Source: Enterococcus hirae ATCC 9790 (GTDB taxonomy: Bacteria > Bacillota > Bacilli > Lactobacillales > Enterococcaceae). Taken from it: a DNA stretch of 64,000 bases. Where the stretch lies: positions 2,097,733-2,161,732 of the forward strand of contig NC_018081.1 in assembly GCF_000271405.2 (NCBI RefSeq), given 5' to 3'. The notes under the pieces are model-generated. The model was not told the origin of the DNA. It did no database searches and worked only from the letters and a program-made list of their open reading frames with translations. The position numbers and the translations under genes are program-made. Below, piece after piece: positions 12,989-62,118 of this stretch. How positions within the stretch are numbered: the stretch's first letter is position 1; each line of letters begins with the position of its first letter.

Positions 12989-15455
12989 ATGAACAAGAAA
13001 AAGTTAGTCAAATGTTCGTTAGCGATTTGGTTGGCGACACAATCTCTGCTTCATCCGTTTTCTTATTCTTATGCCGAAGAATGGAGTAAACCAGACGAAG
13101 AGCAAGTACAAACAGCAACTAGTTTAAACGAACCAGGAGGTAAAAACGATCTGGTCGAAAATCCATTAGAAACAATGATCCAGGAACCTGATGAAAATCA
13201 GCCAGAGTTAGAAGAGTCAATGACAGAAGTTCCGCAAGAAGAACTGGTAGAGGAATCAGAGAGCCTTGATCAACCAACTGAAAGTCAATCAGCTGTTGAC
13301 TTAGATCAGGATCAATTGACGGAAAACACAGAACAAGAGGAGACGCTTCTCAACACTGCCACACCTACAGAAGAATCCACCGATATTGCCAGTGGTGTTT
13401 TCGGAACTTGTTCTTGGCGAATCGATGCAGAAGGTACATTATATATTGGAGGAGGCACATTGGGAGAAACACCGGTTACGTTTTTTCCTCCTTGGTTCAA
13501 CAGCTATCGATTTAAAATAAAAAAATGGTATTCACTGGACCAACGATTGCTCCTAAAGAAACTCATCGCTTATTTTATGGATATAGTAATCTTTTGTCCA
13601 TTGAGAATTTAGCTTATTTAGACGTAAGTCAAGTAACGGATATGACTTCCTTTTTTTCTGACTGTCGTGTACTAAATGGCGTTGATTTGTCAGGATGGGA
13701 TACGTCAAATGTCACGAATATGTCTAATATGTTTTTTGAAGCATTTGACCAAACAGAGAATCTCATTCATCTTGATCTTTCAAGTTTCGATACAAGTAAT
13801 GTAGTTGATATGAGTGGCATGTTCAGTCGATGTACCAAAGTACAATCAATCGATCTTTCTAGTTTTGATACGAGTAATGTTGTCAACATGAACAGAATGT
13901 TTTTTGCTTGTAATGAATTAATTACCTTAGATATCGCTCACTTTGATACATCAAATGTGGTTTATATGTCACGTTTATTCGCTGAATGTAAGAAGTTGCG
14001 CTATGTGGATGTCTCAAATTTCGATACATCAAGTGCGATTGATCTTTCAGTGATGTTTCGTTTGAATTATGAATTAGAGAGTGTGGACGTTTCTAATTTT
14101 GACACCAGTCTAGTCCAAGCAATGAGATACATGTTTGCTAATTGTGAGTTACTAGAGACGATCGATGTGTCTAATTTCAATACAGAGTCTGTGAATTATC
14201 TGACATATATGTTCTTAAATTGTTCGAAAGTAAAAAAATTAGATCTTTCTTATTTTCAGTTTGAGGATCCCGTAGAAATGGCAGAAATGCTGGCTGGAAC
14301 AACGAGCCTCAATGAATTGACTCTTGGTAAAGGCTATCGTTTTGTAGATTCAGCCAATCTTCCTGCTATTCCAGTAGAAGATGGAAACACTGGTTATTGG
14401 CAAAACGTTGGTTCTGGAACGGTTACGAACCCTGCTGGGGAATACGTGCTAACTTCAGAAGAATTGATGACGAACTATACAGGAGCGATGGCAGATACGT
14501 ATGTTTGGCAGAAAGAGCCAAACTATGAATCAATTTTAGCCAAAGATTCGACGCTTTACCTTGGTGAAACCTGGGATCCACAGGATAATTTTATTTCAGC
14601 AACAGATAAGGAAGGAAATCCCATTCCATTTGATATGAGTATGGTCAGTGGAACAGTGGATACCTCAGTAGTAGGAGTGACACCGATTACTTATACTAAT
14701 GGTAGCGCTGCTCAAGTCATTCATGTAACAGTAAAAGAAAACCAGGAGAGCATTCAGGCCAAAGACTCAGTTATTTATGTGGGTGATCAATGGGATCCAC
14801 AAGCTAATTTTGTTTCAGCTACTGATGAAGATGGGATGCCTCTAGCGTTCACTCCAAAAAAGGTGGAAGGTTCGGTGGATAGCCAAAAAACGGGCGATTA
14901 TTTTGTGACGTATACCAACGGAATAGCAAGTAAGACGATCAAAGTAACGGTCAAAGAGAACAAAGAAACACTCGTAGTTAAAGGTTCCACACTCTATGTA
15001 GGAGACAATTGGAATCCACAAGACAATTTTATTTCAGCCAATGATAAAGAAGGAAATCCCCTAACATTTGACCAGAAAATGGTTTCTGGTAAGGTGGATA
15101 CGACAAAAGTTGGCGTTTATCCAGTGACCTATCAAAACGGTCATCAAAAGAAAACTGTTGAAATCCATGTGCTAGCTGAACCAACTAAAGAAAAACCAGA
15201 TGCGGATACGAACCAATCGGGGGATAAAAAGCCAGTACCAGCAACGCCAAATGAGACAACGAATAACAACGATCAGAGAGATAAAAAAGACGAAAAAAAT
15301 GAAAAAAATGAAAAAAATAAAAAGATGAAAAAGACGAACAAGAAGAACAAGAAGACAAAAAACTACCTACTACAGGTTATCAAAAATCAAGTCTTTCTAT
15401 GATTGGCATGGCTTGCTTCTTACTTGGATTATACTTTGTTTACAAAAAAAGATAA
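12989..15455 (+). pseudogene. BspA-like leucine-rich-repeat LPXTG surface protein, broken by two single-base frameshifts
   Basis: The true start is the ATG at 12989 behind AGGGGG. The first frame encodes a signal peptide (ending SYSYA before EEW), an acidic linker and the beginning of the BspA domain, then runs off at a run of seven A (13519-13525) and stops at 13612. The -1 frame continues with seven or more DUF285/BspA repeats (pattern LDLSSFDTSNVVDMSGMF), three bacterial Ig-like repeats of about 77 residues (each with LYVGDNWNPQDNFISA-like text) and a Lys/Asp/Glu/Asn-rich wall spanner. A second single-A deficit at 15319-15323 hides the end; with one more A the frame reads KKLPTTGYQK, a hydrophobic helix and YKKR with stop at 15453-15455, a complete sortase signal. 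If intact, it is a wall-anchored adhesin-like protein. The lesions may be real, sequencing errors, or recoding. Confidence 0.85.
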
Positions 15456-15483
15456 ACGTTAAATAAAGCGTAAATCAACTAGT

Positions 15484-15525
15484 CAATCTCCTCGTTTTAC
15501 GTCATAATGTAAAAAAAGGAGATTG
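15484..15525 (+). promoter_or_regulatory. Hairpin that buries the ribosome site of the next gene
   Basis: CAATCTCC (15484-15491) pairs with GGAGATTG (15518-15525) and TTTTAC (15495-15500) with GTAAAA (15509-15514), around an 8-base loop. The right arm contains the GGAG ribosome site of the gene starting at 15531. It may be a translational switch, or the end of the surface protein transcript. Confidence 0.6.
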
Positions 15526-61632: not shown

Positions 61633-61633
61633 A

Positions 61634-62118
61634 GTGACAGAAATCGAATTGCAGCAACTCGTTGAAAAAATCTCGCTAGATAGTTTTTCATTGCCCTTTA
61701 AGCATCAAGCAAAATTCAATTCTCGTTTGCGATCTACAGGGGGACGTTATCACTTAAACGACCATCATTTAGATTTTAATTGGAAGATGTTTCAAGAAGT
61801 GGATGAAGCGACAAAAGTTGCAATCATTAAACATGAATTATGTCATTATCATTTGCATTTAGCTAATAAAGGTTATCGTCATCGAGATGCTGATTTTAAG
61901 GTTTTACTAAAAAAACGGGTGGTTTAAGATACGCTCCTGCTCTTTCTGCTAAGAAAACGACTAAAATTGAATGGTATCAGTGTGCTAGTTGTACAACCGA
62001 TATTTACCGCAAACGAAAAATCGATACCAAACGCTATGTTTGCGGGAAATGTCGAGGGCATTTGATTTGGAAGGAAACACTGGATAAAGTGCCAAATGAA
62101 CAGCTTTCCAGTAAGTAA
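61634..62118 (+). pseudogene. SprT-like zinc metalloprotease-fold protein, frameshifted at an A7 tract
   Basis: The likely start is GTG 61634, two bases after the tex stop and 8 bases after GAGGCG. The first frame has the SprT text FKHQAKFNSRLRSTGGRYHL and the zinc motif IIKHELCHYHLHL, then ends at 61927 after LLKKRVV. One more A in the A7 run (61909-61915) instead gives LLKKTGGLRYAPALSAKK and a complete C-terminal zinc ribbon (YQCASCTTDIYRKRKI, RYVCGKCRGHL) up to the stop at 62116-62118, about 160 residues, the normal length. The run is the slippery heptamer A-AAA-AAA in the zero frame. The family (YdcK in B. subtilis) usually sits just after tex, as here. Confidence 0.85.

What the first reader, a model, noticed from the sequence alone, without database searches (positions are those of the whole stretch)
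13519..61915. Window-wide pattern: broken genes all repaired by adding one A in an A run
At least six lesions in four genes are of one kind. They lie at 13519-13525 and 15319-15323 (BspA-like), 28531-28537 (sensor kinase), 39856-39861 and 39892-39894 (AraC type), and 61909-61915 (SprT-like). In each, one extra A restores a family-specific C-terminus: LPTTG anchor, GIGVKNVNERI G box, second AraC helix-turn-helix, zinc ribbon. Random pseudogenes would show mixed lesions. Either the assembly under-calls homopolymers, or these tracts vary in living cells. Anyone using the window should not read these genes as lost without raw data.
Basis: partly seen in the sequence, partly recalled or inferred. 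Interest (0 to 1): 0.75.

Follow-up and report, generated by a model that had tools for sequence, protein, structure and literature searches.

The report
Sequencing errors mimicking broken genes
Several genes here look broken, but the breaks are almost certainly letters that the sequencing missed in runs of A or T, so the genes should not be read as lost by the bacterium.

Summary
In detail: four genes are split by single-base frame slips at A/T runs. The window is Enterococcus hirae ATCC 9790 (contig length 2,827,741). Best explanation: under-called homopolymers in this published assembly. (1) Full-length proteins of conspecific-level identity exist for two genes (AraC type 98%, kinase 99%; clusters of 307 and 342 sequences) and match the window as well after the break as before it. 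(2) It reaches beyond the window: in 487.7 kb compared with relatives, 26 of 27 strict break sites lack one base and 22 of 27 lie by an A/T run of 6 or more; five relatives give 16 minus and 10 plus in 891.7 kb, 10 of 26 by such runs. (3) Implied under-calling rises with run length: 0.5%, 2.6%, 19% for true 6, 7, 8. (4) Another truncated gene of this genome, lcpB, was re-sequenced by others and corrected (PMC5059904). mutS and mutL are open. Against a uniform artefact: 26 of 29 minus sites lie in one region (1985-2457 kb), and less conserved genes are hit more. Raw reads were not available.

The parts
12863..13612 (+).
   Evidence: ORF; no Pfam match; matches the N-terminal part of a 942-aa E. 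durans ORF in frame 2, 30% identity
13519..13525 (+). A7 run at the first frame change of the BspA-like gene
   Evidence: run, and stops at 13513 (frame 1) and 13610 (frame 2) that bound the change
13525..15402 (+). Second open frame of the BspA-like gene
   Evidence: ORF; 53% identity to the E. durans ORF over 13570-15171
15319..15362 (+). Stretch with three candidate A runs for the second frame change (15319-15323, 15328-15332, 15357-15362)
   Evidence: for the stops and the first two runs; third run read
15363..15455 (+). Tail with LPxTG motif, in a third frame
   Evidence: motif at 15363, stop at 15453
16070..16096 (+). Weak seventh frame change, of opposite sense, between ORFs 15531-16091 and 16132-17064
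   Evidence: 510-aa E. durans ORF matches frame 3 to 16070 and frame 1 from 16096
28493..30100 (-). Sensor histidine kinase, truncated frame of 535 aa
   Evidence: Pfam His_kinase; P0155 residues 1-528 at 98.9%
28531..28537 (-). T7 run (A7 on the coding strand) at the kinase frame change
28392..28541 (-). Off-frame kinase C-terminus (end of the HATPase domain)
   Evidence: P0155 residues 521-570 at 98.0% in another frame; HATPase_c at 473-568 of P0155
39805..40860 (-). AraC-type regulator, truncated frame of 351 aa
   Evidence: ORF; P0121 residues 1-326 at 98.2%
39856..39861 (-). T6 run at one AraC-type frame change
39892..39900 (-). TTT and T5 runs at the other AraC-type frame change; which run cannot be told
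   Evidence: frames -2 and -1 of P0121 overlap at 39883-39904; T5, TTT read
39690..39863 (-). Off-frame C-terminus of the AraC-type protein (HTH domain)
   Evidence: P0121 residues 334-391 at 98.3% in another frame; HTH_18 at 305-382 of P0121
61619..61927 (+). SprT-like protein, truncated frame of 102 aa
   Evidence: Pfam SprT-like
61909..61915 (+). A7 run at the SprT-like frame change
   Evidence: (five reference genomes)
61894..62100 (+). Off-frame C-terminus of the SprT-like protein
   Evidence: P0001 residues 88-156 at 67% and P0004 residues 88-154 at 71%, in another frame

Best explanation
The breaks are base-calling artefacts of the published E. hirae ATCC 9790 genome: the consensus is one base short at some A/T homopolymers, more often the longer the run. 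The genes in the living strain are most likely whole. Shown: the frame slips, their one sign, their dependence on run length, their occurrence well beyond the window, and full-length near-identical copies for two of the four genes. Inferred: that the copies are of the same species (from 98-99% identity; the records bear no source name), and that the bases are missing from the consensus and not from the cell. The platform is recalled as Roche 454 and was not seen in any call.
For: P0121 (391 aa, 307 members) and P0155 (570 aa, 342 members) are full length and match the window at 98.2/98.3% and 98.9/98.0% before/after the breaks. Strict break sites: 26 minus and 1 plus in 487.7 kb, against 16 and 10 in 891.7 kb of five relatives (Fisher p 0.002); minus sites at A/T runs of 5 or more are 5.1 against 0.56 per 100 kb. 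Run-length dependence. Pseudogenes listed: 128 in ATCC 9790, 55 in the E. hirae R17 chromosome. lcpB looked truncated in this genome, was re-sequenced and corrected to 395 aa; in the assembly I read 1186 nt from start to stop, two short of 1188, and the scan found two minus sites there. mutS and mutL read through.
Against: Minus sites are uneven: 26 in 301.2 kb of 1985-2457 kb, 3 in 186.4 kb elsewhere (p 0.0009). Less conserved genes are hit more: 12 of 93 genes under 80% identity to the nearest relative, 10 of 301 above (p 0.001), which a higher density of long runs explains only in part. Uneven read depth or hand finishing could do this, but so could some real decay. Break sites in the relatives also favour A/T runs of 6 or more, though less (10 of 26). 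The A/T run spectrum shows no sharp deficit of runs of 8 or more. PMC8103633 Table 2 gives 0.97% pseudogenes for GCF_000271405.2, which I take to be this assembly, below the 1.27% of that paper's nanopore genome. At one of the two lcpB sites the longest run within 12 nt of the computed place is only 4. No reads were examined; for the SprT-like gene no near-identical copy was among the 120 listed of 2296 hits, and for the BspA-like gene none was sought.
Confidence: 0.9

Rival explanations
1. Real strain-specific frameshifts: ATCC 9790, a long-kept laboratory strain, lost bases by replication slippage in A/T runs, so these are recent pseudogenes.
For: Less conserved genes are hit more often, as expected if selection removed breaks elsewhere. 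Tails 98% identical to intact copies also fit very recent loss.
Against: Sign bias of 26 to 1 in the strict set; mutS and mutL open; 4 reference ORFs with two minus sites each, and lcpB with two; lcpB, the one case I know to have been re-sequenced, was corrected.
Confidence: 0.08
2. Phase variation: the A tracts change length in living cells and switch the genes on and off.
For: Most breaks lie at homopolymers, and the window genes include a sensor, a regulator and a surface protein.
Against: Runs at break sites are called 7 or shorter; the 58 called runs of 8 or more in tested coding DNA carry no break; broken genes include relatives of cysteine synthase, a DEAD-box helicase, a nucleoside transporter and menH, not a contingency set.
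Confidence: 0.02
3. Programmed or transcriptional slippage at the A tracts makes the full proteins from the DNA as given.
For: Slippage at A runs is known in general (recalled).
Against: The relatives' copies at these loci are coded in one open frame, and full-length conspecific-level proteins are listed as predicted proteins; a shared slip at more than 20 unrelated genes is unlikely.
Confidence: 0.01

Closest known systems
Homopolymer under-call errors of flow-based sequencing (Roche 454 type; recalled)
   Same: Single-base losses at homopolymers, rate rising with run length, giving false pseudogenes
   Different: Platform not confirmed here; uneven spread over the chromosome; too few long G/C runs to judge other bases
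Simple-sequence phase variation (contingency loci; recalled)
   Same: Frame change at a homopolymer
   Different: Runs called 7 or shorter, nearly one sign only, unrelated genes
lcpB (EHR_11995) of the same genome
   Same: Truncated in the assembly, two minus sites, longer in other E. hirae and after re-sequencing
   Different: Lies outside the window, near 2,332 kb

Membership tests
Homopolymer under-call artefact | Indels sit at homopolymers | tested here: met
   22 of 27 strict sites within 12 nt of an A/T run of 6 or more, null 6.2%; relatives 10 of 26
Homopolymer under-call artefact | Losses exceed gains | tested here: met
   26 minus, 1 plus; relatives 16 and 10
Homopolymer under-call artefact | Rate rises with run length | tested here: met
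   5 of 2666, 9 of 1062 and 13 of 354 called runs of 5, 6 and 7
Homopolymer under-call artefact | Absent from independent sequences of the species | tested here: met
   For two of four genes: P0121 and P0155, full length, species inferred from identity. SprT-like: no near-identical copy listed. BspA-like: not tested
Homopolymer under-call artefact | Absent after re-sequencing the same strain | tested here: inconclusive
   Reported for lcpB; not done for the window genes
Homopolymer under-call artefact | Reads disagree with the consensus; platform known | not testable with these tools
   No reads; genome paper not held
Simple-sequence phase variation | Long mutable tract, breaks commonest at the longest runs | tested here: not met
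   No break at 58 called runs of 8 or more
Simple-sequence phase variation | Mixed tract lengths within one culture | not testable with these tools
   No reads
Mutator strain (mismatch repair loss) | mutS or mutL broken | tested here: not met
   Open frames of 874 and 712 aa, no stops inside the matches

The most novel reading that the evidence does not exclude
Some of the breaks, chiefly those in less conserved genes of the 1985-2457 kb region, are real losses in ATCC 9790, so the laboratory strain has lost a batch of sensors and regulators through one-directional A-tract slippage.
Probability: 0.08. Interest if true: 0.45.

Novelty: not a real feature. Interest (0 to 1): 0.12.

Why it matters
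ATCC 9790 is a model strain (title of the genome paper, as cited), and a complete E. hirae genome of the same 2.83 Mb, GCF_000271405.2, which I take to be it, is listed as the GTDB representative of the species. Gene-loss, pseudogene or regulatory claims drawn from it are unsafe at A/T runs. It says nothing new about enterococcal biology.

Tried and rejected
Evenly spaced stretches of two complete relatives overlapped too little, so stretches syntenic with nearer relatives were used as well. The run-length spectrum was not decisive. A mutator origin was rejected. Junctions with no event or with events of opposite sign were dropped as alignment noise before counting, and sites whose first flank ends before reference residue 40 were dropped from the strict set: 7 of 34 here, which include both lcpB sites, and 13 of 39 in relatives. 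The weak seventh window break is not in the counts, because its first flank is under 45% identity. A genome-contig scan for the kinase gave 3 loci and none from the own species. Of the 14 relatives' SprT loci, 5 came out reversed in the DNA alignment and were not used. Paper searches on this strain and its genome gave, of the papers looked into, one that reports a defect in it, the lcpB paper.

Full report
What it is. The window is C2:2097733-2161732 of a genome of 2,856,440 bases; C2 is 2,827,741 bases. PMC5727370 (passages, and section 11 with Table 1) gives E. hirae ATCC 9790 a chromosome of 2,827,741 and a plasmid of 28,699 bases, which add up exactly. The same table lists 128 pseudogenes for the ATCC 9790 chromosome and 55 for that of strain R17.

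The observation. Each of the four genes is split by a frame change at or near an A/T run. The SprT-like gene is in one frame in the 5 reference genomes whose stretches covered it. The kinase and the AraC-type gene were compared with proteins of conspecific-level identity: P0155 (570 aa, 99%, 342 member sequences) and P0121 (391 aa, 98%, 307 members). Against the window, P0155 matches at 98.9% before and 98.0% after the break, and P0121 at 98.2% and 98.3% on either side of a short middle stretch in a third frame. The parts cut off include the end of the kinase ATPase domain and part of the AraC-type DNA-binding domain. The two records carry no source name and only the representative's length is shown, so 'same species' is inferred. 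For the BspA-like gene an E. durans ORF of 942 aa supports the first break, and an LPxTG motif in a third frame supports the second, which lies between 15318 and 15400. A seventh, weaker break near 16070-16096 has the opposite sense.

Is it local? Stretches of this genome were compared with stretches of five relatives by translated search, in both directions. One search found 34 sites in 487.7 kb of this genome (29 minus, 5 plus) and 39 in 891.7 kb of the relatives (23 minus, 16 plus). The strict set, which drops sites near the start of the reference ORF, has 26 minus and 1 plus here, 16 and 10 in relatives (Fisher p 0.002). Minus sites at A/T runs of 5 or more are 5.1 per 100 kb here and 0.56 in relatives. 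An A/T run of 6 or more lies within 12 nt of 22 of 27 strict sites here and of 10 of 26 in relatives; 6.2% of random tested positions of this genome have a run that long. Among called A/T runs in tested coding DNA, 5 of 2666 fives, 9 of 1062 sixes, 13 of 354 sevens and 0 of 58 of eight or more lie at one of the 29 minus sites; two minus sites have only runs of 3 or 4. If each break is one lost base, the share lost is 0.5%, 2.6% and 19% for true lengths 6, 7 and 8.

An outside control. PMC5059904 (passages and section 14) reports that EHR_11995 (lcpB) appeared N-terminally truncated in the ATCC 9790 genome compared with other E. hirae sequences, that the authors sequenced the region, and that they used the corrected sequence; its Table 3 gives 395 aa. 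In this assembly three genes of the family are found, with open frames of 408, 332 and 298 aa, against 405, 395 and 293 in the paper; the short one lies at 2,332 kb beside a shikimate dehydrogenase gene, as the paper's legend says. By my reading its start-to-stop distance is 1186 nt, two short of 395 codons plus stop, and the scan found two minus sites. The corrected letters are in a supplement that I did not see.

What argues against a simple artefact. Minus sites are denser at 1985-2457 kb (26 in 301.2 kb) than elsewhere (3 in 186.4 kb), p 0.0009. Genes under 80% identity to G013 are broken in 12 of 93 cases, others in 10 of 301, p 0.001; the former have more long runs, but not enough to explain all of it. 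Within each identity class the regional difference is not significant (p 0.17 and 0.19). The run spectrum shows no sharp deficit of runs of eight or more. PMC8103633 (passages and section 13) gives 0.97% pseudogenes for GCF_000271405.2, which I take to be this assembly, against 1.27% for its own nanopore genome. Low depth or hand finishing of familiar genes would account for the uneven spread, and so would a minority of real breaks; reads are needed to separate them.

Rivals. A mismatch-repair mutator is unlikely: mutS and mutL have full open frames. Phase variation is unlikely given the short runs, the absence of breaks at longer called runs, and the mixed functions of the relatives' intact ORFs: ribose repressor, radical SAM maturase relative, menH, nucleoside transporter, DEAD-box helicase relative, cysteine synthase, mechanosensitive channel relative, and others without a family (20 ORFs scanned, chosen from the sites).

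Verdict. It is a quality defect of one well-used genome, of a kind long known, with low biological interest.

Noticed in passing
window 17264-17422 and 28088-28197: Two intergenic repeat elements with inverted-repeat character: about 11 and 12 places in 969 kb of this genome, themselves included, and copies in stretches of four of five relatives. The first folds better than all 200 shuffles (z -4.1); nothing in the window matches Rfam at the gathering score. They look like small non-coding mobile repeats.
   Followed up: partly
window 15531-17064: Two ORFs that correspond to one 510-aa ORF in E. durans; the second has BNR/sortilin-like repeats. The frame change has the opposite sense to the others.
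   Followed up: partly
G000 C2 2006787-2016525 (outside the window): Five minus sites within 10 kb, in a radical SAM/SPASM maturase relative, a 591-aa gene without a family and a weak AgrC-like kinase match, possibly a peptide natural product locus.
   Followed up: no
G008 C67:37489 and G011 C1:2014044: Relatives have break sites beside G7 and C8 runs, unlike the A/T pattern here; whether they are errors or real was not checked.
   Followed up: no
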